Shown here piece after piece: positions 3,973-51,929 of a DNA stretch of 64,000 nucleotides (position 1 is its first letter; every line of letters begins with the position of its first letter). This DNA is from Brachyhypopomus gauderio. Taxonomy: Eukaryota > Chordata > Actinopteri > Gymnotiformes > Hypopomidae. The notes below the pieces were generated by a model. It was not told the origin of the DNA and searched no databases. It saw nothing but the letters and a program-made list of their open reading frames with translations. The stretch is taken from positions 124,001 to 188,000 of the forward strand of contig NW_027506977.1 of the NCBI RefSeq assembly GCF_052324685.1, in the 5' to 3' direction. The position numbers and the translations under genes are program-made.

Positions 3973-4164
3973 CGTCCCTGATAACGTTCTCCAGGAACAC
4001 TTTGAGCACACCACGGGTCTCCTCGTAAATCAGACCGGAGATACGCTTGACACCGCCACGACGAGCCAGATGGCGAATGGCGGGTTTAGTAATGCCCTGG
4101 ATGTTGTCACGGAGAACCTTGCAATGACGCTTAGCGCCTCCTTTCCCAAGACCTTTACCACCAT
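3973..4164 (-). pseudogene. Histone H4, internal fragment (locus 1)
   Basis: The minus strand reads H4 from Gly7/Gly8 (GGT GGT AAA GGT CTT) through the core to about Arg-Asp of ENVIRD near residue 69, then stops matching at 3973, so the C-terminal third is gone. Two arginines are changed (RHRK reads RHCK, and IRRL reads IRHL), as expected in an unselected copy. The upstream end at 4164 abuts the A-rich 3' end of a Tx1-like LINE. The first codons and promoter of the same gene lie 22 kb away at 25983-26260, so this is the body of an H4 gene split by retrotransposons. Confidence 0.93.
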
Positions 4165-5048
4165 TTATTTTTTTTATTTATTTAGAAATTTCAAAAGACT
4201 ACATACATAATACACAAACACAAAAACATACAATCATATCCTTATTACAAAAGCATCAAAGATCCAGATTGTCCCAATAGGCTAGAGTGTTGAAAGGGGT
4301 GTTTCCCATTCCTCACTTTTTTAAAATGTATTTTAACAGTCTTTAAAATCTGTTCACTAGGAATGTAGATGTGGTCAATTGTCATTCGTGTCCTAGTCTT
4401 CCACAATTTTGATTTCACAATATTAAGAATAAACCAAAAAAAATCTTTTTGCTGCTTAGAGAGATTTTCTTCAAAAATTCCATAACATATTGCATTACTA
4501 TTCATATTAATATTAACTCCCATATCATAAACTTTTTTCCAAACATCTTTAGATCGATTACATTTGAAAAGAAAATGATCCAAAGTCTCCCGTTCATGAC
4601 AACAAGGCATAGGACATTCAGTGGTTTTAACATAACAGCTCCACCTAACGACAACTCGTACAGGGAGCCTCCTTACTGCAATCAGCCACTGAATATCCCG
4701 AACCTCCTCAGACATATTTGCACTAAAAATGTTTTGTATACACAAGCCATTATTACCACTATCCAAATTCCTAAAATTAACTTTATCCCCATACGCTTCT
4801 TCACAGATCAGGCCATAAATACTTTTATTAGATAAATTCACCCAATCAATATTCAATTGTTCATATTTGTTAATAAAGTCACTTTTTCCCTTTAATTTTT
4901 TCTTTCCAGTTCGAGATGTTACCCACCCACTCAACCTGCCTATTAATTCCATTTGCTATAATCTTGCAGAAGGCTATTTTAAGTTTCAAAGATACATCTA
5001 AAGCTCCCAAACCCCCTAGGTGCCTACCTTTAAAAAGTAACTCTCTTT
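4165..5048 (-). mobile_element. Tx1-like LINE copy A, 3' segment
   Basis: This is the 3' end of a LINE on the minus strand. Its tail (T-rich on +) begins exactly at H4 codon 7. The frame 4245-4952 encodes the C-terminal part of ORF2, including RLPVRVVVRWSCYVKT, a C-x4-C-x7-H-x4-C cluster (CPMPCCHERETLDHFLFKC) and LWKTRTRMTIDH, which aligns with the same region of the intact copy at 48190-51480. Upstream coding sequence reads KRELLF up to 5048, where a CACTA element interrupts the frame. The frame resumes at 12943. This copy belongs to the family that occupies all three H4 sites in the window. Confidence 0.85.
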
Positions 5049-5598
5049 TACACTGCAAAAAAGGCTAGTTGAAATATAAGAAAAAAATACTTAATTCAAG
5101 CATAAAGTTAATCAATACTAGTCAAATTATCTGTCCATGCAGCAAGATAATTTTACTTGACAAGAATTCTCAAAATAAGTTTGTTCAAGTCTTGAAATTA
5201 GATTGCTCTGACAGGCTGCAAGAGCTTAAAATAAGTCAAAAGTACTAATATTTAGATAAAATTACTTGAAAACAGATGTGCTAGACCACAGTAACAAGTC
5301 TACTATTCTGAATATGAGCAAATAATGCTTATTTAGTTTTTGGAACTCTTAATATAGGTTTTCTAATGTAAGTGTAAAATACTTAGTACTAGGGTATTAT
5401 GACTACTTGAAACAAGTTGTCTCATCTTAAAACAGGTACTCTTAAAAACCACATTTTACTTGAAACTAGGTTTTAATCCAGGATCTTACATCTTAAAACA
5501 GGAAACCCATAAGTAATTCACCACCAAAACAAGTGAAAATTCTGTCAACATTTATTGACCGTACTGTAGACCATCAAACCACTTGTTTAAACACAGGG

Positions 5599-5681
5599 GC
5601 TTAATACACACTAAACAACTGAAGTACACAGCAACTGACTTAATACACACTAAACAACTGAAGTACACAGCAACTGACAGT
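5599..5681. repeat. 41-bp direct duplication plus (GA)n
   Basis: A unit of about 41 bp containing AACAACTGAAGTACACAGCA is present twice in tandem. A (GA)n microsatellite follows at about 5825-5862. Both lie between the CACTA end and the companion gene. The frames over the GA run are low-complexity by-products. Confidence 0.7.
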
Positions 5682-5815
5682 GAACAACTGCACATCATCA
5701 CTTTCCCAGTATACTGAGCAAACAGCAAGGTGAGGGAGGGAGGTAGGAGTGAGTAGAGAGAAAGAATGTGTGAATGAATGAGTGAGAAAGAGAGAAGAGG
5801 GAAAGAAAAAGATTG

Positions 5816-5861
<46 letters not shown>

Positions 5862-5938
5862 TGGAGGCATTTAAATACACAGTGAACAACTGCATTTGAA
5901 CATGACTTTGCCCACTAGTAAGCAAACAAAAAATGCAA

Positions 5939-8626
5939 CTACTTCTCAATAAATGATTTCCACTCTGCCATTGCCCTCTTATATGCACCTGTAGCATCTC
6001 GATCATGGATTGTGTCACACAGTACCTCAGTTTGAATGACCGAGAGGAGGGTTGCAACACATTTTGGGTACGTCAGGTGCATCGTATAGTAGTATGCCAT
6101 CAACATCAACATCCCATCAAAGAACTCCTCCTTTGGTATGGTGCTTACAGGTACGTTTCCCACGGCAAGGATGCAGACCTTTCCATCAAAGAGTAACACA
6201 GGACTGGTGAGAGGGCGCTTTTCCAAGTAAAGTGACGGATCCTCCATTGCCTTTAATTTGAAAGAAAAAGAAAAAATTTATAAATGTCTTTTTCTAAGAC
6301 TAAGAAAAATCAATACACCAACTGAAATGCACAATAACCTCACCTGAAGGACATGCAATAGTGCTTCACTGGGATTCCCGAGCCGTTTTGGTGGTGAAGT
6401 TGGTGAGGGAAAGAGTGATGGGAGACCAGTCAAACAGGCAATGGTGAAATCCGCTGGAAGAGGCATAATTAGATAAATTAACATCCGTGTATCAGAGGTC
6501 CTGCAGACACAAATAGGAAGCTGAAGGATTACAGTTTTACAGAGTTCAGATTTGGAATAGAACTGCAACATACCTTCACGCATATTCAAGGGTATAGGTG
6601 GTTTCAGGACTTTCTTCCACACACCATAGAACTGTACATTGGCACAGAAGGTTTCCCATCTTTTCTTTGTTTCATCAATGTATTTGGGGTTGGTGCCACC
6701 CAAGATTCGACGCAGCTCATCCATTGCCTAGGATAAAATTGTGCATTTAGTGCAGCTGATATCATTACACAGAAACAAGCACACAAAAGAGTGAGATATG
6801 AAACTTACATTTTTAGGGTCTTTGAAACATGGATATGCTTCAAATATCTGCGCAATCCTGTCTTCCTCCTTCAACACACTTGAGTCGATGAAGGCCCGCC
6901 TTGCATCAAACTCAAGGTCCAAAATTTGAGCAACATCACTTTGGTTAGGTTTTGAGTTGGGCTTGCTGTACATGTTGGAGAGTGTTTTGTAATGCCTTGC
7001 CTGCATTTTCAGGCTGTCCTGATGTTCTGAAATATAACAGTAGAGTTCAGAAAGTTTAATTATTTCTAAATATATTTTCTTGATCAGCCAAAGAACAGGG
7101 AAAACACATAAATAAAACTCACTGGTAAATATTCAAAGTGCCAGTGTAAAAGGTAAGCTCTTTTAAATTTTATATTTTATACACGCACACAATAAAAACA
7201 ATACTGCATGCAGTATTACCTGGATTTAAGTCATCATTGCTGACATCGCTCTCTGGAAGAATAACAGTTGAAGCAGTTGAAGCTGAAGAACTTGCAGTAC
7301 CTTCTTCTTCTGTACTCGTTTCAAAGAGTGATCTCTTTGCGGACCCTCTTTGTGGCTTTGGGCCCTGCCTCTTTCTTGGAGACTTAATATTTTGCAGTCG
7401 CTTATACATTTTAGAGTAAATCGTCAGCTGTGGCAAAGGAAAGTTGATAAGTTAAGCTGTCATGTCATCCACCAAGCCCTTTAATGTTTTAGATGCAAAA
7501 TAACTTACATATGGCAGATCTGAAGTGTCACGTAGCATAGGGTAATAGTCAACGATCTTCTGTGACACTGCTCTCAGCTCATGTTTTGAGGGGTATCTTT
7601 CCTCTTTTCCCAGGGGACTAGCACGCAGAATGGCAACCATGCTGGTGATTGTGTTTCTGATGAGCCTGCAACTTAGCTCCTTTGACATCTTGCAAACTTT
7701 TTCCTTTCCATTGCGGAGCAAATCAAAATACTGGCTGCGCACCATGTCCAACTCTGAGTCTGTGTACACTACATACTCTGGTGGGTCTGGCAGTTTCACC
7801 GTTTTGGCTGTAATTTCATGAACAGGGGTAGAGGTCTGAGGCTGGCTTGTCAACACTGCACAGGTAGCGGACACATTCCCACTTCCTCGATCTTGATCAG
7901 GATCACCATCCTATAAGAATTACAAAAACACACACAAAACATTCTTTAAAATAAATTAATTTTATGCTTTCCATAAACTTCCTGAGTTCCTCCACAGATG
8001 CATTACCTTTGGGCCAATCATGTCCCATAATTTCTTCCTCTTCAGAAAATTCTCTGGTCCAGGAAAGAGGTCTTTCAAATCTTCCCGACTTAGGGTTTTC
8101 AGAACCTCCTCATCAATATTTGCAGCTTTAAAAATATCAGTAACATGCCTGGCATCAGTATCACATTACACATGTTTTGGTACGAATTCTTCATTGAAAC
8201 ATAGCCTACAACTGTTCATATCTATGAATATTTGCTAGCAGCATGACCATGCTAACTGAACAAAAATGGCACACATTTTAAAATACATACAAAACGAGAT
8301 GAATACACGAAGAATTCTTACACATTGTCCATCCTGATGAGCAAATAACCCCTAACTTAACAGGTCTTTCTTAGAAGTGCCAGCTATTTAATTTAGGTTT
8401 ATCCTACATATTTCTGAAATGCTAACGTTAGCCTAGCTTGTGAACTTTATGTTGCTCCATCTGCGCATGATTCCATTAATGTACCAACTGACACCGTGCT
8501 TTGAAATAGCTTAGCTTAAACACAACTTACCCCGTAGCACCGACAGTGTAGTCTCATCTAAATCATCCATACCATCCAAGAAAGTGGCTTTTCTTTCTGT
8601 CTCTGTTCTCAAATGTAAGCAGTTAT
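5939..8626 (-). CDS. SAMD3-like companion gene of the CACTA element
   Basis: Eight minus-strand exons with consensus splice sites and compatible phases: about 8626-8531 (start MDDLDE at 8570), 8188-8007, 7910-7509, 7427-7220, 7026-6809, 6727-6574, 6453-6344 and 6250-5939. The second exon encodes a SAM-like segment (HVTDIFKAANIDEEVLKTLS). Later exons read IVDYYPMLRD, LDLEFDARRAFIDSSVL, PSLFPSPTSPPKRLG and HLTYPKCVATLLSVIQTEV. These match the sterile-alpha-motif, SAMD3-like proteins repeatedly annotated in fish genomes. One defect is visible: an in-frame TAA at 8166-8168 near the start of exon 2. The gene is divergent from the transposase gene, with a shared upstream region at about 8630-9158. 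Its role in transposition is unknown; association with this CACTA type is inferred from position. Confidence 0.8.
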
Positions 8627-9158
8627 CTGAGGACAAAACATATCGATAAGTTTGCTAATGATACCTAGCAAAAGCATTTAGCTTTGTAATGTAGACTTGC
8701 TGACTATGGCTAGCTTTCGATTATAACTTTAAGCTCCTCAGTCTCCAAGCTAGGAGAGCAGGTAAAATATTAAATAATATCGGAACAAATGTATACAATA
8801 TACTACACCAAAGATATCGTGAACATAATGTTAAATCCGTGCTTACCCCGACGTGCACTTTTCAGGCTTCCGTTGAACACTGCTGCTTTTTATCTGAAAA
8901 AGGCGGCAATTCTCTTCAACGTTGAACTGACGCATCTGTTTGACGTGCGGGTGAGCGGAGAGCAGGTCATAGAGCAGAGGTGTGAGCAGCGTGCGCAAAT
9001 ATTTTCTCATATATAAAATTGTACGACATAAGTTGTTGTAAAAATTCATATTCATATTTCTGGCAATTCATATTTTTGGTTAGCAAATAGGAAGCACAGG
9101 TGTAACCAATCCCACAGACAAGCACCAAAACGAGCCTACTAAATACTACTGGAGTGTC

Positions 9159-12100
9159 ATGGCGGTGTGGCGGTGCATGATCTGTTTCGTTTTTGTTGCG
9201 TTAAGTTTAAAATCGCTCCTCAGCCACATAAATGTCACGCATGGCCGTAGTCAGGATTTCTGGGTTCTTTGTGGAATTGATGGTTGTGAACAAGATTTTA
9301 GAGTTTACAACTCATTTTATCGCCATCTTAAACGAACACACCCTTTGTATTTGGCGACCGGATGCCCACCAAGCGGATGGAGGACAACACCTACATCAGC
9401 TGTACTTGGGTCAGAGAACTTTGGTGCATCTATCTTTTCTGAAGCCACTACTCCTGCAAGAACATACTTTGTAGAGGAACAGTCACACGGTAGTCAAATT
9501 GAAACTTGTATGGAAACAACTCCTGATTCCCATTCTATTCAGGTAAGTTTTGATTTGGCAAATTGCAAAGTTAATTTTAATCCATGAGGCATATTTATGA
9601 TTCTTGATTAAAATTACATGGTTTAGCCTACATGATTTCTGTATTTTGAAGTGAAGACAGTCAAAATGTATTCTATAAAATGTATTGTAGGTTATGAAAC
9701 TTAAGTTGAAATTTAATATGTATTATGGATTTGGATATGTGCATTTGTTATGACTATAATAATAATAATAATAATAATAATAAGTTAAACTTATATAGCA
9801 CCTTTCTAGTACCCAAGGACACTTTACAAAATTCCTATTTCAATTCAATTTCAATGTTTATTTCAAATATGGAAAACTAAAAACAAAACAAATGATAAAA
9901 CAGATAACAAAACAATTTATCAAAATTCCTATGAGAAGAGAAAAAAATAATAAATGAATAAATACGAAAGACTACTGAGATATTCAATTTTATTTATGAA
10001 AGGAAAATAATGGCGCTGGAACATCTGTAACCAAACCGGATATTGGCAAGTCTGCGGCAGCATTTGCAATCAGTGTCCGGGAGGAATGCCATTTGTCACA
10101 GGTCAGTTTTGCATAAAAAATGCATGCAGATGGAGTGAATGTAATAATAATTGATAAACTGACACCTTAATTGTAAAGTAGGCTCATTCTAATGCATCAG
10201 AATGTGTTGCATTTAATTCTGTGAGGTCATGACATTATATTAGTAAAAAATTAAGACCAATTGATGACTTTTCACAGAGGACTGTCAACAGAGTCATTGG
10301 GGGGGTGCAACAGTACCAAGCAACTCTCTTGGATACATTAAGGATAAGAATGAGAAGAATTTTTGACAGACATCCAGAGACAACCACTCAGCTTCAAAAT
10401 GAGGTTCTGAATACTTTTGATACTTTCAGAGATCCTTTCTCAACCACAGCATATGGACAGAATAGGACTATTTGTGAACTCTTCAGTCCAGTCTGCCCAG
10501 AGGAAGTTGTTGTCTCTCAGAAGATTTGTTGGGTGAAACAAGGTAGTTCAAAGGTTATGGCCATAAGAAACAAATGTTTTTACTATGTACCACTAATTGA
10601 AAGTCTAAAGCAGCTACTGACCAATTCTAGAATTTTCTCCATGTTGAACACTGTACCACAGAGAAGCAGAGAGGGATTCTTGTATGACTTTTCAGATGGT
10701 GCTCTATTTACATCTCATCCTTTATATTCTGTGAGGCCTAATGCTTTGCAGATCATTTTGTACTCAGACGATATTGAAATATGTAACCCTCTAGGGCCCC
10801 ATACTTCTTCAAATAAGTTGTTAATGGTTTACTACAGTTTAGGTAATATTGATCCAAAATTTAGGTCCAAGTTAGCAGCAATACGACTCCTTGCTATTGC
10901 AAAATCTGTTGATGTTTCTAAATGGGGTATAGATGTTATTTTACAAAGAATTATAAAAGATCTTAATCTACTTTATAATGGTGTCAAGGTTGAAACACCA
11001 CATGGTGAAATGAACTTGTTTGGAGCTGTGATAGCAGTATGTGGAGATACACTTGCTCAACATGAGCTTGCTGGCTTTAAAGAAGGGGTTGGCTTTGCCT
11101 ATAGCAAGTGCAGACACTGTGAATGCACCTTTGAGGATATGCAAATACATTTTGATGAGAATAATTTTGTCAGAAGAACACTAGAAAGGCACATTAGGCA
11201 ATGTCTTGAAATAGACAAGGCAAGCACAGATACTTTAAAGGCCTCCCTCAAAACTACTTACGGAATTAATAGAAGAAGCAGACTTATTGATGTTCCTGCA
11301 TTTGACCTAATCAGACAAACTCCACAGGACATAATGCATGTAATTTTTGAAGGTGTTGCACCAATGGAAATCAAGCTTGTGTTAAAAAGTCTTATACTGT
11401 CAGGTAATCTAGAGTTAGATGTGTTCAATTCAGCCATTCAGAGTTTTCCTTACTCGCCTCTTGATATACGTGATAAACCTTGCCCTGTTAGTGTCAGCAC
11501 TTTGACAGCAAGTGACAACAAATTAAAACAATCATGTGGGCAAATGTTAATACTGTTAAAAGTATTACCTTTTATTCTGTATGACTTGGACAATGAGTAT
11601 GTTACATTCATTGTTAAGCTGATTGAAATTGTACAGATTGTTCTTGCTCCTATTATTTCTTTACAGACAGTAATACGGCTTAAACTTATGATTGAAGAAC
11701 ACCTTAGTCAGTTCAAACATTTATTTCCCGAAACTAATGTAATACCCAAGCAACATTACATGTTGCATTTGCCCAGTCAAATTCAATCCCTTGGTCCTTT
11801 AATAAGAACTATGTGCCTGCGATTTGAGGCCAAGCACAGTTATTTCAAACAGTGGGCTCCAAAATTGAATTTTAAAAATGTGTGCAAGTCACTTGCCAAA
11901 CATAATCAATTTCTTGAATGTTGTCAGAACGAAATTGGCATTGAACATCCCATTTTCGCAACCGAGAGGGAATTGGGGCCTGTTACTGATATTTCAAATA
12001 CTGATTATGTTAAGGCCAAATTTAGAGATTTTTTAAATATGGACATCAGTCAATCTGTTGTCTCTGTGAAGTGGCTAATTCTCAATGGAAATAAATACAT

Positions 12101-12422
12101 CAGTGGCAGGTCTCTAATTATTGCAGATGTGAATGATACTTTGCCTGTGTTTGGACTGGTTAAAGACATCTTTTTAGTAGATTCTTCTTTTGTTGCTTTT
12201 GAATATCAGCGTTATGAAACATTGCATTTTGATAACAATTTGTTGGCATATGAAGTTACAGTTCCTACTATTGCCCAGGCAACAGAATTGGTGCATGAGC
12301 TTTTAGATCAAACCTCATATTTTCCAATAAATTTTAAGGATAGTGTGTTTGTGCCAATAAAATATACTCTCTGTGATGTTATTGTCATAGGAACGGCCCC
12401 AGGTACGTATAATGAGCTCTGA
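9159..12422 (+). CDS. CACTA transposase with N-terminal C2H2 fingers
   Basis: Three exons, all phase 0: 9159-9542 (donor CAG/GTAAGT), 10003-10101 and 10278-12422. Together they give about 875 residues. Exon 1 carries two C2H2 fingers (CMIC...H-x4-H and CGIDGCEQ...HLKRTH). Exon 2 reads KSAAAFAISVREECHLSQ. Exon 3 is the TNP2-like catalytic part, with LYSDDIEICNPLG, NKLLMVYYSLGNI, VCGDTLAQHELAGF followed by a CRHCEC metal-binding pair, and DIMHVIFEGVAPMEI. Acidic residues in these blocks are the likely DDE/D set, by analogy with the family. A possible donor (CAG/GTACGT at 12400-12408) just before the stop could extend the gene into a further exon. Intron 1 contains an (AAT)n run and a fragment of a LINE tail. 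Confidence 0.88.
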
Positions 12423-12942
12423 ATGAGATGTCCTCCTATACTGTACATTAGTTTGCTGTAGCTAGCTATGTATTGGCCAGTTGTAGGCTGTTTGTTTCAC
12501 TGATCCAATTCCATTGTTGAAAAGTGGCCAAAGCCAATCTTTTGTTGGTTTGCTTACTTTGTTCATCTAATTTCAATGATGAAATGGCATTTACCAATAA
12601 AAATTATTGTGAATTCTTCTCGAATTAAGAAATCAAACTTAAATCAAGAAATGTAATGTATGAATCAAACTCAGTTTATGTGGCTAAATCTTGAAATTAG
12701 TTTTATGTTGTGGAATAAAAGAGTATAAATTGATTCCTAAGGTATTTTTACCAATAATTTACTAAATTTAAGATTTCTTGACTAAGTAAGATAAGATGGA
12801 CACATTCATGATGAATTTTAAGATTATGCTATGGGACCAAATGTAAGAAACTAGTGAATAACACTTGAAACAAGATAATCAATATAAAATTTCCTAATGT
12901 AAGATTTTAAATCTTGGTAAGAAGACAAAAATTTGCAGTGTA

Positions 12943-13288
12943 GTCACTTCCCTTGTTGTATTCCAAATAAAATTACATAATATCTTATTAATCCTCTTGC
13001 ACCACCTGTCAGAGGGTGGAAATACGCATACTAGAAAAAGGATTTTAGAAAGAAAAAACATTTTTAAAATACCTATTCTTGCTTTATAACTCAAATTTTT
13101 ATATGACCATTTTTTTATTTCAACCTTAATTTCTTCTTGTTTCTGTTCCCAATTATAGTCTACACACTTTTGGTTATCTATCCAAATACCTAAGACCTTA
13201 ATCTGTGATCGTTCGGGGATATCAGTTTTAAACTTCAGATCCAGATCTCCAATCCAGAGACATTCTGATTTTAAAACATTTAGAACTG
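12943..13288 (-). mobile_element. Tx1-like LINE copy A, middle segment
   Basis: The minus strand reads VLNVLKSECLWIGDLDLKFK and continues through KARIGILKMFFLSKILFLVCVFPP to CNFIWNTTREVT, the thumb-proximal part of the reverse transcriptase. It aligns with intact copy C (KLNSNKTEVVWMG through VRFIWGSNREVTKREL). The segment is bounded by the CACTA element on one side and by the element at 13295-21057 on the other. Both junctions fall inside otherwise continuous ORF2 sequence. Confidence 0.85.
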
Positions 13289-13741
13289 CACCTGTATGGA
13301 ATCAGATTTGTGCCAAAATTATCAAACAAAACTTCTTAAATAGCAAACAAAATCAAGAACTCAAGAGAGAAATAATGTTACTGAAGTGATAAAAATGTCA
13401 GCTCAAAAGCAAAACTCATTATCAAAAGTGTAAATGACTACTGGTTTAAAGTATTGCAGAAATAATTGTTTTGCAAATATTATGTGCCCTTGCTTGCGAT
13501 TCTCTTTGCTTGTTTCTCACTGACCAGACGTTTGCTCTCGTTGTCACGTTTGCGTTGCCAGCTGTCTCCTTTGCGCTGCCTGACTTTTTGTTTGCAATTC
13601 TGACACAAAGATCTTGCGTGGGCGGGGTTTTCTAGGGGTGCGTTCCCATTGGCTAATGGGAAACTCGGTGACCCAGAAGAAGTTGTTTAGCACAGCAGGC
13701 CTGAAAACTCCTGTACGGACATAAGAGGACAACTCACAAAA

Positions 13742-13909
13742 TAACTTTATTAGTGTGTAAGTATTGATCTGTGTTCGTTGTATCTGCTGTACCAGACATA
13801 TTGTTTTGTTAAGTTTGAATTATATGTAAGATAAGCTCCGTGTTCGCTTTAAAATAATGACCTAACTAGACATCTATCATGATTTCTAGCTAGCTAATTA
13901 CCACGGTTG

Positions 13910-13966
<57 letters not shown>

Positions 13967-13975
13967 GTGATTGCT
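13742..13975 (+). repeat. Long inverted-repeat arm, left
   Basis: About 180 bp (TTTATTAGTGTGTAAGTATT through ATCATGATT) followed by a (TATC)n run at 13910-13968. It is nearly identical, in inverted orientation, to 20835-21052, which carries (GATA)n at about 20840-20883. The right arm touches the element end, whereas the left arm begins some 450 bp inside the left border. Confidence 0.85.
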
Positions 13976-14551
13976 AGTCTATCTATAACGATTCCTTGCT
14001 TGCTTACAAGTTAGCTATTTATCATGATTGCTTGCTAGCTAGCGCACTGTTATTGACCAAGTGAGCGAGTGAATAGACACGCTCGCACACAGACGTGTCA
14101 TCTCTGGGTAGATATGCATGCAACAACAGTTTTAGTTGTTCTCTCTGTAGAGCAGTTGTGACATCTGAGGAGGGCCTGAGCCAAGATGCAGTCCCAGGTA
14201 GGTCAATTATGGTCTGTTTTAAAGGATTAGGATAAAACCATTACATCTGTTTTGGCATACAATGAGAAACTTGGCTTATCTTTGGCTTATGTATTTCTAC
14301 ATACTACTTATACACGTACTTTTAGATCCCAGTGCCATTCTTAATTATGTCAGTTTAACTTAACTATGACAATGTTTTTTCTTACTGCTATAAAAAATGT
14401 AGCACAATCTGTGAGCGAGACTTTTTAAGAGTCATGTAATGAAATGTGTTTGTATAGACACAAATGTTTCTCAGTGCTGATTTGATAACATCTGTGCCTG
14501 CAGGATCAAGTATGTAATGAAATCTTGCAAAGGATTCAAACATGATTCAGC

Positions 14552-15016
14552 TTGATTCTCAGAAATGAAACACTAGATTTGGATTACCTTGTGAATGTTG
14601 CTCAGCAAGAGCTTTCCTTAGCCACAATGGCATCACATGTCCTAAATATTCCACTGGAACTTATTAACAGTCTACATGAGTTGATTAACACCCTTAGCTT
14701 TCATGATCAGTGGTCAGCTGTCACCTGTAACTACTACGATGTACTGCATACAATGGAAGAAGAGCGGTTGGTTGACTGCACAGATGAAATGCACCTCTTT
14801 TGTGTGCATTATGTGTTTCTTCCACGATTGAAGTCTGACCTGGAGTGCTTCCTGAGTAGCTGGAACAGGCATCCCATCAGAACAGAAGGAAACCTCTCTC
14901 CAGAGCAGCTGTGGCACATTGGGAACCTCCAAACACCTGTGGCTGAGCCAGATGTAGAGGTACACTTGAAGCATTGTATACACTTTACAATTTGCCCTTT
15001 AACAAGTTTTGACTAA
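14552..15016 (+). pseudogene. Integrase-like domain protein, C-terminal fragment
   Basis: The frame reads YYDVLHTMEEERLVDCTDEM, HLFCVHYVFLPRLKSDLECF and WNRHPIRTEGNLSPEQLWHI. These blocks match the C-terminal half of the widespread fish proteins with an integrase core-like domain. A possible short upstream exon (ATGCAGTCCCAG, donor at 14203-14204) and an acceptor near 14504 are present, but an in-frame TGA (14541-14543) precedes the recognised part and the N-terminal catalytic half is missing. It is therefore probably a relic of the transposase of the surrounding element. The reading frame ends shortly after the conserved region. Confidence 0.6.
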
Positions 15017-15849
15017 AATCTTCCTCAGCAGAGTAAATATGAGAGAATGCCAGTCCTTTTTGTATTATTCATTTTATTGGATTTTTTTAACAGGAGTATT
15101 CTACATTAAATTGGAACAGGCATAGTAAATGTATTAAACACTGCACAATAAAATTATCAACAGTGCAGTATGTTGTAAGAAAATATTTTATAACTATGAA
15201 ACCAACATTTAGTAATAACCATTTAATAACCATTTAGAGAGGTTAACAGGCTTTTTAGATTCTATAAAAGCCTGCACCACATTTGATTGCTGTTGCTATG
15301 TTTTCTTTAAATTCACAGTATAGCACAAAGTGTGCAGTAGGAAATGTGATTGTGTGTGTACATGCACTAACAAGTGGATAACAAATTGTGTGGCTTTGCA
15401 TGCGTTCTATGCAAGTGTGATCAAAGTGCACTACAATCTTAAAGTTCTCTCTTTCTGAAAGTAGTAGGTGCCTGTGTCACTGCCCAGTTAGTCACTGCAG
15501 CACTTGTGGTACAGAAAGTGGATCTTCATCTTCAGTAGTTCCATCTAGACAAATAAAAAACGAGAATGTCATAATAGCTGAGCAGAAATACGAAATTAAT
15601 TTAAGACCTGGTTTTGGGCCTGCCAAATTCCAAGATACTGTGCACTCATTTAAAATTATTAAATTGGCATAATTAAAAAATCTAGTTTAGGACCAGCTTC
15701 TGCTAGTACCTGGTGTCAAGTGATTTTTTAAAAGCAGGATAGTAATGCAAGTTCTCTCATCTAATACTGAAATAAGATAAGATTTCTCTTCTGTTCATAG
15801 CTTACATTGGCATGTACAGATTGATTCTAGCCCTTGTTACTTTTGTGAA

Positions 15850-18365
15850 CAGGGTATCTGCACATTTTTAAATCTCAAATTCAATGACATTTAAGACCTT
15901 TTTAATACCTCTCACAAGAAAAATTAATAACAGGTGGGGGGGACACAAATGGGGGTTCTGGTGTTTTCCAGATCGTAGACCGGGGGGGGGGGGGGGGTGG
16001 TGACCGCAAAGTGTTGACGCCGGGGGGTGTTGTGGGGGTGTTCACGTGTTATCGGAGCGGTTGTTTTCTGCATGGTCCTAGCGATAGGTTCGTCGCTATT
16101 TAAATATTTGTTTTTTTTTTTTTTAACCGTTAAAAACTGTGGGGGACCAAATCCAGCTTTTTAAAAAGTACCGCTCCCCCCCCCCCCCCCCCCCCCACCC
16201 CCAATTACGTCTGTGACTGTTGTAAAAAATGACAAACAAGGTAATAGTATACAAAACTTTTTACTTAACTGAAATAAATAATGCAGTCCACCTTAGGGAA
16301 CAAAAAACTAAAAAAAAAAATTTAAATAACTATTAAATAAATATGAAAGTGCACTGTTAAGAGAACTCTTTAAATAACTAAAGAACTTAAGAATTAAAGT
16401 TGTTCTATAAACAACTAAAATATCCAAACAACTAAAATATCCAACTTGTTCTGCACCATACTTCTGCCAGAGACAATCTATAGAGTTGTTTGACTGTGTT
16501 TGTCTCCCATGTTTCGCAGCTCGGCAGTCTTCTCTTCAATTTCACTAGAATAAGAATTAGTAACTGCTCTTTTTTCTTTTGCACGTCTCCTCAGTGTGTT
16601 TGACTTTGTTATAAGTGTTGCCATCTTGGTCCCTGCAGTATTCTCTGCTTGTTCTGCGAAGTTGTCTGCATCCTTTTGGAGACTCTCGCACACATTTTGT
16701 ATAGATGTTCTTCTCCTCTTTAGTTCTTCTATGCTTTCTTCTGCATTCTTTCTCTTCAGTTTTTGTTCAGCCATTTCCTTCTTGCTTTTTTCCTCTTCCA
16801 GGTAAGCTCTGTACCTGGTGCGTGCAGTTGCACAGTAGTTCAGCATCTCTTTTGTAAGTGGTACTTTGGACACTGAACCATACACTCGGACATGGTCACA
16901 GACAAGTCTCTGTGCAATAATGGTATCCTCTGCTATGTTGCATGTTTCCACCTCTTTGTTGACTGAGAACCCCCGTTCAACTTCTGCTTGCCCATGGGAT
17001 AAGAGCAGCAACTTCTTGCAAAAACTCCAGAGCTCAGGGTAAGAACTGCTGATGTGATGATGTAAAAATACATCAACTCTGGAGCCTTGGACTTGTGGAC
17101 TGAATGACATGAAGTCTTCAGCTCTGGCATTGTTAAACAAGAAGGTCTCAAACTGCTGTGAAATCATATCACCTGCAATTAGAAAAACATAAATATTCAT
17201 ACAACAACAATAGCAAAACACACAAAGTTTGAATGAATTAATAATGTCAGAACAAAATTAAAACCATAACATTAATAATTGATAACAATAATTTTAGCAT
17301 ATATTCAAAGACTTGTGTAACTAAATTAATCTATCACTCAACAAATACAAAAAGTGCCCCCTGCCTCTCAAGCTGTGACTGATCCCAAAACACCCAAATT
17401 TGTTATACACGGTTAATTGTGTATAATTTCAATTTGTGTCAAATATCAGCACTTAGTGAGGCACTCATGAACATGAATATACTGGCCAAGTGAATACTCC
17501 CTGTCAAAATAAGAGACTTGGTGTAGGAAATGTCATTTCAATGTTTAAAGAGAATATTAATATCCATGTGGGAATAAATATTATTTCTTAGCTAAGAAAT
17601 TAATGAACCTAATAGTCTATTCCATGATATTTCTATTTCAAAAATTTACCAGCAGATATTCCACCCGTCAACTGATTATCCTGCACAAACTTCTGGATGA
17701 AACACCTCATTTTCTGCAGGCACTCATCTGGCTTGGAGTACATTTTGTTTGGGTCCAAACACATCATGTTTCGTACTACAGAGTACTTCAGAGGGCACTT
17801 ATCCAAAGCTTTCTTGCAGATGCTTGAGAGGGCAATCTCACAGTCTTTCAGAAATTGCAAGACTCCATGCTCGTTTACACTACTTTTGGCCCCCGACAGT
17901 CCCTGGCAAAAATAAAGTGGTTTGTCAAATCTCCAGAACAACTCAAACAACTCTGAACATATCATATAACTCATGGACATACAGCTAAAACGTTCCTAAT
18001 TAGTCACACATCTATGACCTAACATCATGGTGCTTAGATATTCTGCAACAACAATTACTGAATTGTTCTGATTAAAAGGGATGAATATACTGGATGTCCC
18101 ACACCTGGATGACATACCTTGAGGATAGCTGCTGCCCCCATACCAATGTCGACCTCCCTTGGACTGACCCAAAGTTTCTGGTCTGTGACGTCAAGCCTTA
18201 CAAGCTTGTATGGAGTAATGTCCAGGGCATCCCGCTTGATAAAGCGTCTGAGAAGACTCTGAAAAGCAAAGTTATTTAAGTAAGTGTGTGTTTGAGTAGT
18301 TCCATTGTCAGAGGAGAATGTATGAGTGTGTGGGTGGACATCATATAATTTGCAGCTTTTGAAAG

Positions 18366-18429
<64 letters not shown>

Positions 18430-20458: not shown

Positions 20459-20469
20459 GTGAAAATTAC

Positions 20470-20740
20470 TGACAAAACTGATTGCACATCTTGCATGTAG
20501 CAACATGAATGTTCATCATTCATCATCAAACCTGCTTAATCCATCAGTCACAGGAAGGCTGGAGCCTATCCCAGCAATTTCATTCTCCAATTCACCTGAA
20601 CATACCATCTTTGGACTGTGGGAGGAAACCCACACAGAGAGCACATACATGCTCCACACAGAAAGACCTGGATCACCCCAGCCAGGAATGCAATACGAAT
20701 ATAATCATTCTTTAAAGACATTGTAATTAAATGGATCAAA
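20470..20740. repeat. Common teleost interspersed repeat fragment
   Basis: Contains GGCTGGAGCCTATCCCAGC and GGACTGTGGGAGGAAACCCA, words of a very abundant fish repeat whose fragments are found throughout teleost genomes. The two overlapping open frames here are incidental. Confidence 0.6.
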
Positions 20741-20834
20741 TGATGTACAGTGGAATATCATACATACAACAGATAGTATATGGTTTTGAACATGTTTAAT
20801 TACCACAAAACATGATTAATGTATTTTAAATATA

Positions 20835-20838
20835 ACGG

Positions 20839-20885
<47 letters not shown>

Positions 20886-21052
20886 CAATCATGATAATTA
20901 GCTAACTAGCAATCATGATAGATGTCTACTTAGGTCATTATTTTAAAGCGAACACAGAGCATATCTTACGTATAATTCAAACTTAACAAAACAATATGTC
21001 TGGTACAGCAGATACAACGAACACAGATCAATACTTACACACTAATAAAGTT
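20835..21052 (-). repeat. Long inverted-repeat arm, right
   Basis: Inverted partner of 13742-13975 with only a few mismatches over about 180 bp, preceded by (GATA)n. It ends four to five bases from the border with LINE A. Confidence 0.85.
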
Positions 21053-21620
21053 CCTTACACCTGATGCTTCCTCGTAAGTTTTAAAATGATTAAGTACACA
21101 CTGCATTTCTTCATTGCTTTTCACAAAGACAGTAATATCATTGGCATAAGCAGTAATTTTAACAATCCTATCACCGACTTTAACCCCTTTTATTTCATCG
21201 TCATTTTCAATTTTTTTTTATTAAAGGGCTGATTGCTAGAATATAAAGAGCCGCACTGAGGGGACACCCTTGCTTCATAAGTTCTAGAGACATAATCTAA
21301 TGCTTTTTTTTTATCCAAAGCTACAATAAAAAAAACTTTCATTACTTTCATACAGTGCCTCTCTGAGTGTGCAGAGGTTGTCCCATAACAGTTGCCCTTT
21401 TATGGCACATGTCTGTTCTTTGATAATCACTGAATCCAAAACCTTACTTAATCTGTTCATTAAAATTTTAGCAAAAATCTTATAATCCATATTCGTCATA
21501 GTGAGATGTCTATAATTATTTAATAGCCGCACGTCACCCTTTTTATATAATAAGGATAGAACACCATCATAAAAAGTGTCATGCATACACCCTTTTTTTA
21601 TACCTTCATTATACACCCAT

Positions 21621-44844: not shown

Positions 44845-44879
44845 GGCTTTCAGAAGAGTCAAAGCTTGCAAAGGAGTGC

Positions 44880-46789: not shown

Positions 46790-46817
46790 ATGTCTGGAAG
46801 AGGTAAGGGTGGTAAAG
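46790..46817 (+). pseudogene. Histone H4 start codons (locus 2)
   Basis: ATG TCT GGA AGA GGT AAG GGT GGT AAA G reads MSGRGKGGK. The last 15 bases (GTAAGGGTGGTAAAG) reappear at 51639-51653 after the LINE, so they are the target-site duplication of copy C. Confidence 0.95.
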
Positions 46818-46898
46818 CTTTGTTCACACGGCGCTGTTGTTAGAATTATGAGCGGCAGAGGGAAAACCGGTGGTAAGGCTAGGGCCAAGGCCAAGACC
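46818..46898 (+). pseudogene. Histone H2A 5' UTR and first 17 codons, fused to LINE C
   Basis: CTTTGTTCACACGGCGCTGT leads to ATG at 46848 and codons reading [17 protein letters not shown]. It matches the 5' leader and start of the intact H2A gene at 61885 base for base over most of its length, including the UTR word GCGCTGT-GTT-ATTATGAG. The match stops at 46898 and LINE 5' UTR follows. It lies between the H4 target duplication and the LINE, so it entered together with the LINE. Confidence 0.88.
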
Positions 46899-46960
46899 GG
46901 TGGACTGAACTTCTGAACTTGTCAGTGTGATGTTGAGGAGCTCCCTGTGGGCGTTGTGAA

Positions 46961-48193
46961 ATGGAGCCCAGGGGAGTTTCCCCACCAGTGGCCGCGAGGC
47001 ACTGGGTTAGACTCCGCTTTACCGGAGAAGGAGTCACACCGAACCGCTCCAAGGTCGGGGCGAACCTACTACATAGCCAGTGGATTAATGCAGCTGATAT
47101 ACATTCTTTTATTTTCCTTCAGAATAGAAAAGACTATGAGATCTGCTTCACTAATGAATCAGCTTTACTGAGATTCACAGACATTTTTAACAATTCTTCA
47201 GGAAATGAGTTTTGGAGATTGTGGGTTATGACAACATCAGCCCCACAGGATGTAAAGTACATTGTAGTAAAATTCTGGACTGGACGTGTCTCCGATGGGG
47301 ACATAGAGTGTTACATCACACGCTACTGTGAAATATTACAGCCTGTACACAAACCCGTAGATCAATTCGGTTTATGGTACGGAGTTAGGCGTTACAAAGT
47401 CAAGGTAAAGAAGTCTCCGGATGGAAGCTTGACCACAATTCCCAACTCCATCTCCATAGGCCCATACAACGGCACTATCTCATACCCAGGACAAGTGCAG
47501 AGATGTTTCGTGTGCATGAGTGCTGACCACCAGGCAAAAGATTGCGACGAAACCAAGTGTTGGAAATGCGGTAATTTTGGCCACAAAGGGAAAGAGTGTA
47601 CAAACACCGTGGTGTGCAACCTTTGCCAAACAGCAGGGCATCTTTATTTCCAGTGCCCGAATTCGTATAGCAACAAACTTAAAGCACTCAGGCCGACCGA
47701 GGAGGTGATCAATGAGATCTTGGAGGAAAACCGCACTATCGAGTCTACACAGCAAACAGCGCAGGAGACGGTGGCAGATCCGGACACCGGAACAGCAGAG
47801 ACACCGACGGAAGGACAGCTGATGGGCATCGACAGCTCATGGGAGAGTGACAAGCAGCAAACCAGCGCTGATGACTCCTCTACTTCAGCTACTACAACGA
47901 CCTCTACATCTACCAGCTCATCGGATGGTACAGAGGACTCCGTAGGAACCCAGTACACCCCGCTACCAGGGACCATCACCGTGGATAAGGAGACATCTAC
48001 ATCTCGCTCCGGATCATCCGAGACCGCGCAGAAACTTCAATGTAAACAAGGTGACGCTTTAAATTCTTCCACTGTGATAATAACTGCTGAAATTGACAAT
48101 AAGAGCGATAAAAGACGTAAGAGGGAATCCCCCTTGCAATCTATTTCTAAAAAAGCTCGTGAATGTCCTTCTGTTAAAAATAAAAAAAGATGA
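46961..48193 (+). CDS. LINE ORF1 protein, three CCHC knuckles
   Basis: 410 residues, starting MEPRGVSPPVAARHWVRLRF. Residues 1-175 form the family's N-terminal domain (QDVKYIVVKFWTGRVSDGD, VDQFGLWYGVRRYKV). Residues 182-245 contain three adjacent zinc knuckles: CFVCMSADHQAKDC, CWKCGNFGHKGKEC and CNLCQTAGHLYFQC. The rest is a Ser/Thr/Glu-rich, low-complexity tail ending in a basic KKARECPSVKNKKR. Tx1-clade ORF1 proteins have this layout and are thought to bind the element RNA. The start codon is the first ATG after the H2A leader, and the overlap with ORF2 suggests coupled translation. Confidence 0.9.
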   Translation: MEPRGVSPPVAARHWVRLRFTGEGVTPNRSKVGANLLHSQWINAADIHSFIFLQNRKDYEICFTNESALLRFTDIFNNSSGNEFWRLWVMTTSAPQDVKYIVVKFWTGRVSDGDIECYITRYCEILQPVHKPVDQFGLWYGVRRYKVKVKKSPDGSLTTIPNSISIGPYNGTISYPGQVQRCFVCMSADHQAKDCDETKCWKCGNFGHKGKECTNTVVCNLCQTAGHLYFQCPNSYSNKLKALRPTEEVINEILEENRTIESTQQTAQETVADPDTGTAETPTEGQLMGIDSSWESDKQQTSADDSSTSATTTTSTSTSSSDGTEDSVGTQYTPLPGTITVDKETSTSRSGSSETAQKLQCKQGDALNSSTVIITAEIDNKSDKRRKRESPLQSISKKARECPSVKNKKR

Positions 48194-51100
48194 CGAACCT
48201 TAATGTAACCTCTCTAAATATAAGAGGTATACAATCCGAAAAAAACCGAGTAAAGAAAATAGCTGCTCTTTTGCAGAAGAAAACTGACATTTTTTGCCTT
48301 CAAGAACTAAGACTGACCTCTGCACAGGATGTGGAAGATGTTAAAAAAATGTGGATTAATGAAAATATCATAATTTCTATTGGTGAAAACCGAGCAGATG
48401 GAGTTGCTGTACTGTTTAACATTGATGTAGAAATAATTAAGATTCGGCATATTATACCAGGAAGACTGCTGATGGTTGATTGCTATATAAAAAACCAAAA
48501 GATTAGAATAATTAATGTGTACACCCCACCAGATAGAGCAGGAAAAATGAGGATCCTTCACAAGCTGTATGAATTATCTGTTGGATACAGTACTATATTA
48601 TGTGGAGATTTTAACACCACCACACACAGAAATGATAAATTTCCACCTAGCAACTCCATTTCTAGAGAGGGTAAACTGCTGAAAAGGGTTTCAGAAACAT
48701 GTAAACTCAAAGATTCATTCAGAGAAAAATTCCCGGAAGATTTTGGGTTTACTAGATTTGACAAAAAAATAAAAACTAGAATAGACAGGATCTATGTATC
48801 TGACAAAATCCATGTCATGATTTATAAAACTGAATACCTGGTCGAGTCGGATCACCTAGGTGTTTCTGTTAAATTAAGCTTTGACAACAGAGCTCAAATT
48901 GGGTATTGGAAATTAAATACAAACTGTTTAAAAAATAAAGAATTAGTTGGTGAATTAACAGACGAAATAAATAGAATTAAGGATCTAAGAGTTTTAACGA
49001 AATCAGACAACCACATGTGGGCTATTTTTAAAAAACAAATAACTGCTTTCTTTAAAAGGAAATGCAAAGATCTTAACATTCAAAAAAATGAAAAATATTA
49101 CTCATTGATTTCAAAATACATAGAACTCCAGACTAAACAGATTAGAGATGAAGAAGAAGAGGAGGAATTATACAAAATCAAATCAGAAATAACGCAGATA
49201 AATGATGATCTTACTTTAAATATTCAAATACAAGCCGGTGTAGATACAATTCACTCAGGAAATTTACAAACCATCATCAAACAGTTACAAAAACGCAAAG
49301 AAAGTAAGTATATAAAAGGCATTAAGGATGATTTAGGTAATGTGATAACTGATGAAAATGATAAACGGAACTTAATAGCTAAGACATGTCGTGAAGGTTC
49401 GACTAGGGTTAACGTCGATGATCATGACATTTTGAAATTTTTAAGCAATTGTAAAATAACACCAAGCATAAACGATGATGGTCTGACAAACCCAATCACC
49501 ATTAAAGAAGTTTTAACTGCTATATCTGAGTTAAACGTAGGGAAAAGCCCTGGCCCAGATGGCCTTCCATCAGAATTTTATAAATTATGCAGCTCAAACA
49601 TCGCCGACTTATTGGTTAAAATGTATAACGAAGGTATCAAAACAGGAGAGATGCAAAAAGATTTTTATCATTCTGTTGTCTCCTTGATCTTTAAGAAGGG
49701 AAATGAGAATGATTTGGACAACTGGAGACAAATAAGTGTAATGAATATTGATTATAAGATTTTAGCAAAAATTGTGATGAACAGAATGACTAAAACATTA
49801 CAGAATATAATAGATAGTGAACAAACATGTGCAATTAAAGGAAGATTCATGTGGGATAATCTTGGTATGTTAAGGGAATTGATTACAAACAATATTGGAA
49901 GAGAGTTTTTTATTGTTGCCTTAGACCAAAAGAAAGCTTTTGATTTTATATCAAGAGAATATCTGTGGTGTGTGTTAAAATATTATGGCTTTCCTGACAA
50001 ATTTATTAACATTATTAGATTGCTGTACATGAGATCCAATGTTCAGATTAATGTGAATGGGATTTTAACTGAAGGATTTGAGGTACAGAGAGGGGTTAAA
50101 CAGGGCTGCCCTTTAAGCGCAGCTCTGTATGTTATTGCAATCAGTCCTCTTTTAAACATTATTAAAAATGATAATAGGCTCCAAGGCGCCCGAACTGCCT
50201 CTAACCAAATAATAAAGGTCTCTGCCTATGCAGATGACGTGACTATATTCATCAAAAACCAAACAGAATTAGAGGTGATTAAACAGCTTTTTAAAGAATA
50301 TGAAAGTGTCTCAGGAGCCAAACTCAATTCAAACAAGACTGAAGTTGTGTGGATGGGTAAAAATCCAGCTCCTCCTTTAGATATGGAGTGCAAAAAAGAG
50401 ATTAAAATTTTAGGTATAATATTAACAAACGGAAAGTGTGCTGAAGAAAACTGGAAACAGAAAGAAATTGAAGTCCAGAACGAAATTGACTTGTGGAAAG
50501 TATCAAATTTTAAAAGTAGAATAAAAATAATTAAAACCTTTGTGCTCTCAAAATTGTTGTTTTTAGCCACTGTCTTTCCACCAGATAAAAAAACCATTAA
50601 CAGATTGAACAAAATGTGCGTCAGATTTATCTGGGGCTCAAACAGAGAGGTCACAAAGAGAGAACTATTGTTTAAACCTATTGAGAAAGGAGGCCTGAAC
50701 GCAATGGAAATGGGAAACAAATTAACGATAGCCTTTTGTAAAAATGTGGCACAGGCTATAGATAGACGCGCAGATTGGGTAGGTGACAGAAAAGACTGGA
50801 CTAAAAAACGAGGGAGAGGGAGACACAAAATACCTGATTTTAAGCTTTTATATGGTGACTTTATATCAAAACACTCTGAAACCAACATAGACTGGCTAAA
50901 TATGACAAACAAAGTAATCTATAACAAAATCATAGCAAAAGAATACGGGGGTAATTTTTGTTTTAAATACCTTACACCTAACGAAATGGATGTAGGGATA
51001 AAAAACCTCAGATGTAAAGATCTCTCAGAAAATATGAGAGACGTAATGTGGTTGATTGGTGTGGGTAGATTATCAGTCAGGTGCGTTGTGAAATGGAGTT

Positions 51101-51480
51101 GCTACGTTACCACCAAACTGTGCCCTATAAATGGATGTAACAACGATGAGACTGTTGAGCACCTTTTGCTATATTGTCCCCGCTCAGCAGAGATATGGCA
51201 ATACATGAAAGAAATCGGGCTTAATATTACCATAAACGAAAAAGCTGTCATGCATGGCATATTCATAGAAACACTTCCAAAAAAAGTTCACAACCTGTTT
51301 TGGCTAACAATCTGCATAATAAACAATAAAATTTGGAAAACAAGATGCAAAATGATAATAAACCAGTGCCATATCTCTGCTGAGACGGTTTTTAAACAGA
51401 TAAAAATCGAATTGAGGAGACAACGGACGGTCGATAGAAGGACAATTAACACACTGCCATGGGACATTTTGGATTTTTGA
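48190..51480 (+). CDS. LINE ORF2: APE endonuclease and reverse transcriptase
   Basis: 1096 residues. The N-terminal APE-type endonuclease has LNIRGI with Asn10, LQELRL with Glu39, CGDFN with Asp140, RIDRIYVS and ESDHLG with Asp221-His222, so the catalytic set is complete. The RT carries GKSPGPDGLPSEFY, VALDQKKAFDF with Asp579, QRGVKQGCPLSAALY and the YADD box at 680-683. The C-terminus has a CCHC cluster, C978-x4-C983-x7-H991-x4-C996, as in Tx1/L1-type elements. The frame is uninterrupted. The endonuclease would nick the target and the RT would prime on it. Given the repeated H4 junctions, this endonuclease, perhaps with the C-terminal cluster, is inferred to recognise the H4 5' coding sequence. 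Confidence 0.93.
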   Translation: MTNLNVTSLNIRGIQSEKNRVKKIAALLQKKTDIFCLQELRLTSAQDVEDVKKMWINENIIISIGENRADGVAVLFNIDVEIIKIRHIIPGRLLMVDCYIKNQKIRIINVYTPPDRAGKMRILHKLYELSVGYSTILCGDFNTTTHRNDKFPPSNSISREGKLLKRVSETCKLKDSFREKFPEDFGFTRFDKKIKTRIDRIYVSDKIHVMIYKTEYLVESDHLGVSVKLSFDNRAQIGYWKLNTNCLKNKELVGELTDEINRIKDLRVLTKSDNHMWAIFKKQITAFFKRKCKDLNIQKNEKYYSLISKYIELQTKQIRDEEEEEELYKIKSEITQINDDLTLNIQIQAGVDTIHSGNLQTIIKQLQKRKESKYIKGIKDDLGNVITDENDKRNLIAKTCREGSTRVNVDDHDILKFLSNCKITPSINDDGLTNPITIKEVLTAISELNVGKSPGPDGLPSEFYKLCSSNIADLLVKMYNEGIKTGEMQKDFYHSVVSLIFKKGNENDLDNWRQISVMNIDYKILAKIVMNRMTKTLQNIIDSEQTCAIKGRFMWDNLGMLRELITNNIGREFFIVALDQKKAFDFISREYLWCVLKYYGFPDKFINIIRLLYMRSNVQINVNGILTEGFEVQRGVKQGCPLSAALYVIAISPLLNIIKNDNRLQGARTASNQIIKVSAYADDVTIFIKNQTELEVIKQLFKEYESVSGAKLNSNKTEVVWMGKNPAPPLDMECKKEIKILGIILTNGKCAEENWKQKEIEVQNEIDLWKVSNFKSRIKIIKTFVLSKLLFLATVFPPDKKTINRLNKMCVRFIWGSNREVTKRELLFKPIEKGGLNAMEMGNKLTIAFCKNVAQAIDRRADWVGDRKDWTKKRGRGRHKIPDFKLLYGDFISKHSETNIDWLNMTNKVIYNKIIAKEYGGNFCFKYLTPNEMDVGIKNLRCKDLSENMRDVMWLIGVGRLSVRCVVKWSCYVTTKLCPINGCNNDETVEHLLLYCPRSAEIWQYMKEIGLNITINEKAVMHGIFIETLPKKVHNLFWLTICIINNKIWKTRCKMIINQCHISAETVFKQIKIELRRQRTVDRRTINTLPWDILDF

Positions 51481-51503
51481 TAGTGAGTAATTGAATGTAA
51501 AGG

Positions 51504-51547
<44 letters not shown>

Positions 51548-51638
51548 GTATGTGTGTATTTTGTTTATTGGTGTATATTCCCACATGTTTTTTTTTTTGA
51601 ATAGCTGCTGAAAACCAATAATAAAGATTCAGTAAAAA

Positions 51639-51929
51639 GTAAGGGTGGTAAAGGTCTTGGGAAAGGAGGGGCTAAGCGTCATCGCAAGGTTCTCCGTCCA
51701 GGGCATTACTAAACCCGCTATTCGCCGTCTGGCTCGTCGTGGCGGTGTCAAGCGTATCTCCGGTCTGATTTACGAGGAGACCCGTGGTGTGCTCAAAGTG
51801 TTCCTGGAGAACGTTATCAGGGACGCGGTTACCTACACCGAACATGCCAAGAGAAAGACCGTCACCGCTATGGATGTGGTTTATGCTCTGAAACGCCAAG
51901 GACGCACTCTGTACGGATTCGGAGGTTAA
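51639..51929 (+). pseudogene. Histone H4 body (locus 2)
   Basis: Resumes H4 with GTAAGGGTGGTAAAGGTC and runs to FGG-stop at 51929. In addition to the upstream LINE there is an 8-bp loss after codon 24: KVLR is followed directly by the end of the Ile27 codon and QGITK, deleting Asp25, Asn26 and two bases. The rest ([20 protein letters not shown] through [14 protein letters not shown]) is otherwise canonical. The frame starting at 51645 reads out of phase before the deletion and in phase after it. Confidence 0.93.

What the first reader, a model, noticed from the sequence alone, without database searches (positions are those of the whole stretch)
3973..51929. A LINE family that inserts at one site in the histone H4 coding sequence
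Seen directly: three LINE copies (A, B and C) each have H4 codons joined to both ends, all within a few bases of codons 5-10. Copy B is flanked by AAGGGTGGTAA, copy C by GTAAGGGTGGTAAAG, and copy A by a 26-bp duplication starting GGTGGTAAAGG. All three point in the H4 sense direction. B and C differ strongly in ORF1, so this is not one insertion that was duplicated. Known from the literature: site-specific LINEs (R1/R2 in 28S, and Tx1-clade elements in 5S or U2) favour multicopy RNA genes. A target in a protein-coding histone gene is not one I know of. Inference: the multicopy histone cluster provides a safe, repeated target.
Basis: partly seen in the sequence, partly recalled or inferred. Interest (0 to 1): 0.95.

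Follow-up and report, generated by a model that had tools for sequence, protein, structure and literature searches.

The report
LINEs that insert into histone genes
Several related jumping elements in this (probably fish) genome insert at one spot near the start of the histone H4 gene, and at the matching spot in histone H2A, and seem to be copied from the histone genes' own promoters; such site-specific elements were known mostly from RNA genes and simple repeats.

Summary
In the window, LINE copies A, B and C interrupt H4 at codons 5-15. Genome-wide, 18 family-C 3' ends were found: 8 abut H4, 6 abut H2A at the homologous nucleotide (both genes encode SGRGK), and 4 (two events) lie elsewhere in histone contigs, at G^YAA sites. 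Families A and B, about 40% identical in ORF2, use the same H4 site. Nine of nine half-H4 genes over 400 bp start at nt 14-16 despite different 5' truncations (one rearranged 380-bp piece starts at nt 82), as target-primed reverse transcription from one nick predicts. One H4 site holds not a LINE but a spliced, polyadenylated copy of host UBE2W mRNA, so the site belongs to the enzyme, not the RNA. Some copies begin with H2A or H4 leaders starting near the expected transcription start, implying histone-promoter transcripts. The nearest intact relatives found include copies beside U2 snRNA genes, as Tx1-clade Keno does. The listed results of seven paper searches showed no LINE aimed at a protein-coding gene; Repbase and other fish genomes could not be checked. 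Verdict: a real site-specific LINE lineage with a new class of target.

The parts
46790..46817 (+). H4 nt 1-28 (codons 1-9), 5' flank of LINE C
46818..46897 (+). H2A leader plus about the first 50 nt of the H2A coding sequence at the 5' end of LINE C (5' transduction)
   Evidence: 86% match to the window H2A gene at 61913-61836; same piece at query 88-165
46961..48193 (+). LINE C ORF1 (410 aa; two ZCCHC3-type RNA-binding domains and a CCHC zinc knuckle)
48190..51480 (+). LINE C ORF2 (1096 aa; apurinic-type endonuclease and reverse transcriptase); its ATG overlaps the ORF1 stop (ATGA)
51481..51638 (+). LINE C 3' untranslated end, ending AATAATAAAGATTCAGTAAAAA
51639..51929 (+). H4 from nt 14 to the stop codon, 3' flank of LINE C (carries an 8-nt deletion)
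25983..26008 (-). H4 nt 1-26, 5' flank of LINE B
23738..25982 (-). LINE B (ORF1 at 25872-25021, internally deleted ORF2)
23709..23737 (-). H4 nt 16-44 between LINE B and LINE A (3' flank of B, 5' target duplication of A)
4163..23708 (-). LINE A, 5'-truncated and interrupted by other sequence (ORF2 pieces 23679-22664, 21628-21053, 13295-12915, 5049-4278)
3973..4162 (-). H4 nt 19-208, 3' flank of LINE A
61600..62000 (-). H2A promoter, leader and start of coding sequence (ATG at 61885), the type of gene the transduced leaders come from

Best explanation
These are non-LTR retrotransposons (LINEs) of an APE-endonuclease, Tx1-like lineage whose endonuclease nicks the H4 coding sequence at a fixed point, opposite G^YAA after the first codons (Ser-Gly-Arg-Gly), and cuts H2A, which encodes the same SGRGK, at the homologous point. 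The nick primes reverse transcription of the element RNA, so the 3' junction is constant (nt 14-16) while the 5' end varies by truncation and the target duplication runs from 7 to 26 bp. [Junctions shown; nicking inferred from them.] The element then lies just behind the histone start codon and is transcribed from the histone promoter; copies made from H2A-resident elements carry the H2A leader into H4. [Leaders shown; promoter use inferred.] The enzyme also works in trans: a spliced UBE2W mRNA was inserted at the same point. [Product shown.] Many H4 and H2A genes stay intact, which probably makes the disruptions tolerable. [Inferred.]
For: Family-C 3' ends: 8 of 18 at H4, 6 of 18 at the homologous H2A nucleotide, 4 of 18 elsewhere. 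H4 query: 9 of 9 three-prime halves over 400 bp start at nt 14-16. H2A query: the three 3' halves at 90% identity or more start at nt 14, 14 and 16, and the 5' halves facing the first two end at nt 20 and 22. Different 5' truncations share one 3' junction: H4 5'/3' nt 28/14, 24/14, 27/14, 26/16, 26/16, 27/14. Families A, B and C are 38-44% identical in ORF2 yet share the site. UBE2W retrocopy without introns, with polyA and duplication of H4 nt 14-27 (parent on C19). H2A leaders at element 5' ends start at -39, -34 and -28; an H4 leader starts 34 nt (counted by hand) after a TATA-like box. ORF2 carries EN and RT domains and aligns with human L1 ORF2p. Four C copies differ by 3-6 of 3138 nt in ORF2.
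Against: Four of 18 family-C ends (two events) and one A-related end (L073, C20) are not at the canonical site. Degraded relatives on C1 (34-43% identical to the L026 query) showed no H4 in the roughly 600 bp read past their ends (L076, L077). Two of the six H2A ends (L049, L051) abut an H2A fragment inside a composite, not a whole gene. In the H2A search a 69%-identical C20 match starts at nt 50 and was taken as a divergent gene. Segment duplication inflates copy counts. L026 has no target duplication and L024 lacks an H2A 5' flank. Transcription starts are predicted from TATA-like boxes only; no RNA data. Template switching onto histone mRNA could also give the leaders. No other species was tested.
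Confidence: 0.93

Rival explanations
1. One or two LINE insertions in H4 were multiplied by duplication of the histone cluster, giving a false look of site specificity.
For: Several copies are clearly duplicates: L046/L048/L053, L041-L043, and B in six segments.
Against: Eight H4 insertion events remain after merging duplicates, told apart by family, 5' truncation, duplication length or inserted sequence, plus H2A insertions on C10, C17 and C20 and the UBE2W retrocopy (counted among the eight).
Confidence: 0.03
2. The LINE inserts anywhere, but histone clusters are open chromatin or tolerate insertions, so survivors are seen there.
For: The two off-site family-C events also lie in histone contigs.
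Against: The 3' junction is fixed to within 2-3 nt, and among the 18 family-C ends only the two off-site events (4 ends) fall outside the H4/H2A site. Survivorship cannot fix a nucleotide.
Confidence: 0.03
3. The histone leaders at element 5' ends come from template switching onto H2A/H4 mRNA during reverse transcription, not from transcription of the element by the histone promoter.
For: Template switching at the 5' end of LINE cDNA is known (recalled). The shared junction of H2A nt 50 with CGGTGGACTG could be an old switch.
Against: The C70 composite carries H4 leader, H4 nt 1-29, H2A leader, H2A nt 1-27, truncated LINE, H2A nt 15-50 and full LINE in one unit; read-through from resident promoters explains this more simply, and the H2A pieces flank the truncated LINE exactly as an H2A insertion would.
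Confidence: 0.25

Closest known systems
Keno (Tx1-clade LINE specific for U2 snRNA genes)
   Same: APE-type endonuclease plus RT and site-specific insertion. The nearest intact relatives found in this genome (27-29% identical in ORF2) include copies beside U2 snRNA genes (4 of 8 loci searched), as Keno is (PMC6136364, passages).
   Different: The target is a protein-coding histone exon (H4, H2A). In the tree the B and C families form their own fully supported group.
R2 (28S rDNA LINE)
   Same: Fixed target in a multicopy gene and transcription with the host gene (R2 thought to be cotranscribed: PMC2881922, passages).
   Different: R2 belongs to the clades with a restriction-like endonuclease (PMC4640811, passages); this ORF2 has an apurinic-type one. 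The target differs.
Human L1
   Same: ORF2 domain order and EN/RT alignment (E 2e-75). L1 also mobilises host mRNAs in trans (recalled).
   Different: L1 uses a loose A-rich target (recalled); these elements use one nucleotide position in H4/H2A.

Membership tests
Tx1-clade site-specific LINE | APE-type endonuclease and reverse transcriptase in ORF2 | tested here: met
   PF03372 E 4.2e-12 and PF00078 E 9.7e-35; aligns with L1 ORF2p
Tx1-clade site-specific LINE | ORF1 with CCHC zinc knuckles | tested here: met
   zf-CCHC E 4.5e-6 plus two ZCCHC3 RNA-binding domains; that this is typical of Tx1 is recalled
Tx1-clade site-specific LINE | Sequence-specific insertion | tested here: met
   14 of 18 family-C 3' ends at the homologous H4/H2A position; fixed junction
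Tx1-clade site-specific LINE | RT phylogeny inside Tx1 with named reference elements | tested here: inconclusive
   No named reference sequences to hand; tree of 11 rows from this genome only, with long branches and uneven letter make-up flagged
Keno | Insertion at U2 snRNA genes | tested here: not met
   Insertions are in H4/H2A
R2 | Restriction-like endonuclease, 28S target | tested here: not met
   Apurinic-type endonuclease at the ORF2 N-terminus; target is H4/H2A
L1 | Non-specific insertion at A-rich sites | tested here: not met
   Fixed site

The most novel reading that the evidence does not exclude
A LINE lineage has specialised on the codons for the SGRGK tail shared by H4 and H2A. It depends on replication-dependent histone promoters for its own expression, alternates between H2A and H4 as hosts, and as a side effect writes host mRNAs into H4; one result is an open reading frame that fuses the H4 tail to most of the E2 enzyme UBE2W behind an H4 promoter. 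As far as I could see, it would be the first site-specific LINE known to target protein-coding genes.
Probability: 0.55. Interest if true: 0.93.

Novelty: new variant of a known kind. Interest (0 to 1): 0.88.

Why it matters
[quoted passage not shown] A lineage fixed on an exon of one of the most conserved proteins would show that a protein gene can serve if it is multicopy. It would tie the element to S-phase histone promoters (inferred), leave readable records of promoter-driven transcripts, and offer a natural endonuclease aimed at a widely conserved sequence. The UBE2W retrocopy is unusually direct evidence that target choice lies in the enzyme.

Tried and rejected
Duplication-only and open-chromatin explanations were rejected on junction evidence. 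I first read the H2A piece in copy C as a second target site; it is better read as a leader carried in with the RNA, while H2A insertions exist elsewhere. Of 81 rows of the tail-pattern search, 63 (1-2 mismatches) were set aside as background (reversed-pattern control: 54 hits); I read the flanks of 12 of the 63 (L056-L058, L060-L068) and none was a LINE end. The other 51 were not read. The C1 hits (24-43% identical) had no H4 in the stretches read (L076-L078). Cross-species tests were not possible: the sequence collections held are prokaryotic, viral, phage, plasmid and metagenomic, and the scans for related loci were not used. No structure prediction was run because the question turned on junctions. 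Paper searches: (seven answered). I saw listings only, and some were cut (20 of 292, 20 of 2,081, 15 of 319); no listed title or abstract start described an H4- or H2A-targeted LINE. Repbase and subscription papers (for example Kojima and Fujiwara 2004) were not readable here.

Full report
WHAT IS THERE. The window is G000:C133:124001-188000 of a 796.5-Mb genome in 840 contigs (organism not named, probably a teleost by inference). It carries H1, H2A, H3 and broken H4 genes. With nt 1 the A of the H4 start codon, copy C follows nt 28 and is followed by nt 14 onward; copy B follows nt 26 and is followed by nt 16; copy A is flanked by a 26-bp duplication of nt 19-44. A and B share one H4 gene: H4(1-26)-B-H4(16-44)-A-H4(19-208). 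A is 5'-truncated and interrupted.

ELEMENT. Copy C has ORF1 (410 aa, two ZCCHC3-type RNA-binding domains, a CCHC knuckle) and ORF2 (1096 aa, apurinic-type endonuclease and RT); the ORF2 ATG overlaps the ORF1 stop. ORF2 aligns with human L1 ORF2p over residues 3-838 (E 2e-75). B is 57% (ORF1) and about 42% (ORF2) identical to C; the C-terminal piece of A is 38% identical to C and 44% to B. The next intact relatives, 27-29% identical, include copies beside U2 snRNA genes: U2 was found in 4 of 8 loci searched (L029, L033, L034, L036; U5 also in L034 and L036). Keno of the Tx1 clade is the known U2-specific LINE (PMC6136364, passages). In a tree of 11 rows B and C group with full support apart from these elements, though long branches and uneven letter make-up were flagged. 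Degraded fragments on C1 are 34-43% identical to the B query and were not seen at H4.

SITE. A pattern for the family-C 3' end gave 81 places at up to 2 mismatches (reversed control: 54). Of these, 18 are C ends (17 exact, one with a mismatch). Their 3' flanks are H4 in 8, H2A at the homologous nucleotide in 6, and other sites in 4. One of the 8 (L050) and two of the 6 (L049, L051) abut histone fragments within the C70 array rather than whole genes. The four others are two events: L040/L047/L055 share one site (duplication GCAAAGTCAGACA read for the L047 copy), and L052 lies antisense in an H4 fragment with duplication AGTAATGCCCTG. Both sites read G^YAA, as do H4 and H2A. An H4 gene query gave 44 matches from 40 scored candidates, so counts are lower bounds: 30 span the site uninterrupted, and 9 of 9 three-prime halves over 400 bp start at nt 14-16. 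One 380-bp piece, C70:149952, starts at nt 82, at the L052 insertion. An H2A query gave 43 matches: the three 3' halves at 90% identity or more start at nt 14, 14 and 16, and the 5' halves facing the first two end at nt 20 and 22; a 69%-identical match on C20 starts at nt 50. All six B 3' ends read (window, L026, L069-L072) and all three A ends read (window, L074, L075) are at H4. One A-related end on C20 (L073) is not.

INDEPENDENCE. Duplicated segments multiply copies: B occurs in six segments, one truncated C in three, another in a three-unit tandem. After merging, eight H4 events remain, with 5'/3' nt 28/14 (C), 24/14 and 27/14 (truncated C), 26/16 (L023), 26/16 (window B), 13/16 (L026, no duplication), 44/19 (A) and 27/14 (UBE2W); two H2A events give 20/14 and 22/14, besides H2A insertions on C10 and C20. 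A fixed 3' junction with variable 5' truncation is what target-primed reverse transcription from one nick predicts. H4 genes on C17 with the upstream flank of copy C (96% identical) but no insert show the empty site. Four C copies differ by 3-6 of 3138 nt in ORF2, so activity was recent.

TRANS MOBILISATION. At C17:1512007-1513990 the H4 site holds a copy of host UBE2W mRNA: 96 of 99 residues match human UBE2W in the best PDB alignment (E 2e-67), then stop, 3' untranslated region, polyA and H4 from nt 14. A gene on C19 has introns at two points where the copy is spliced, and its 3' region is 99% identical. A duplicate lies on C70. H4 codons 1-9 are in frame with the UBE2W part, an open 107-codon frame (Pfam UQ_con). 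It lacks about 52 N-terminal residues of the enzyme, so function is doubtful.

PROMOTER USE. Copy C begins with an H2A leader and about 50 nt of H2A coding sequence. Leader pieces begin at -28 (window C), -34 (two places on C70) and -39 (C20:11246281, at an A-related LINE) of H2A. A TATA-like TATATC at -68 predicts a start near -38. On C70 a composite starts with an H4 leader, 34 nt after a TATA-like box of the C20-type H4 gene, then H4 nt 1-29, the H2A leader, H2A nt 1-27, a truncated C, H2A nt 15-50, full C, then H4 nt 15-29 and a second unit. Its two ends, about 10.6 kb apart, share the duplication AGTAATGCCCTG, and the C17 duplicate of the same H4 fragment (L079, same TATACCC variant) is the empty site. 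So it entered as one piece with the H4 leader at its 5' end. The simplest reading is successive transcripts from an H2A and then an H4 promoter. No RNA evidence exists here, and template switching is the rival.

KNOWN OR NEW. [quoted passage not shown] The word histone does not occur in the main text of PMC4640811, PMC8869645, PMC2881922 or PMC5753468 (term counts). PMC6136364 (passages) reports short ERV1 and Gypsy pieces within H1, H3 and H4 clones of a characiform fish, and Keno with U2, but no LINE in a histone gene in the passages seen. Seven paper searches (listings, some cut) showed no LINE aimed at a histone or other protein-coding gene. Repbase was not available, so a database-only entry is possible. 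The element works like, and probably belongs to, the Tx1 group; its target class is new to what I could see.

Noticed in passing
L082/L079, C17:1512007-1513990 minus; duplicate C70:162162-162458: In-frame fusion of H4 codons 1-9 to most of UBE2W, an open 107-codon frame behind an H4 promoter, made by retroposition at the LINE site.
   Followed up: partly
L027-L038; contigs C26, C113, C215, C621, C778: Arrays of LINE copies, some beside U2 (and U5) snRNA genes, many with open ORF2 over 1100 aa: a Keno-like family.
   Followed up: partly
L040, L047, L055 (C17, C133): Family-C insertion at a non-coding site near H4 with duplication GCAAAGTCAGACA, present in three places.
   Followed up: partly
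L083 and L073, C20:11240500-11246420: An A-related LINE with an H2A leader at its 5' end but a 3' flank that is neither H4 nor H2A.
   Followed up: no
window 51639-51929: The H4 remnant behind LINE C has an 8-nt deletion relative to intact H4, so this gene is broken twice.
   Followed up: no
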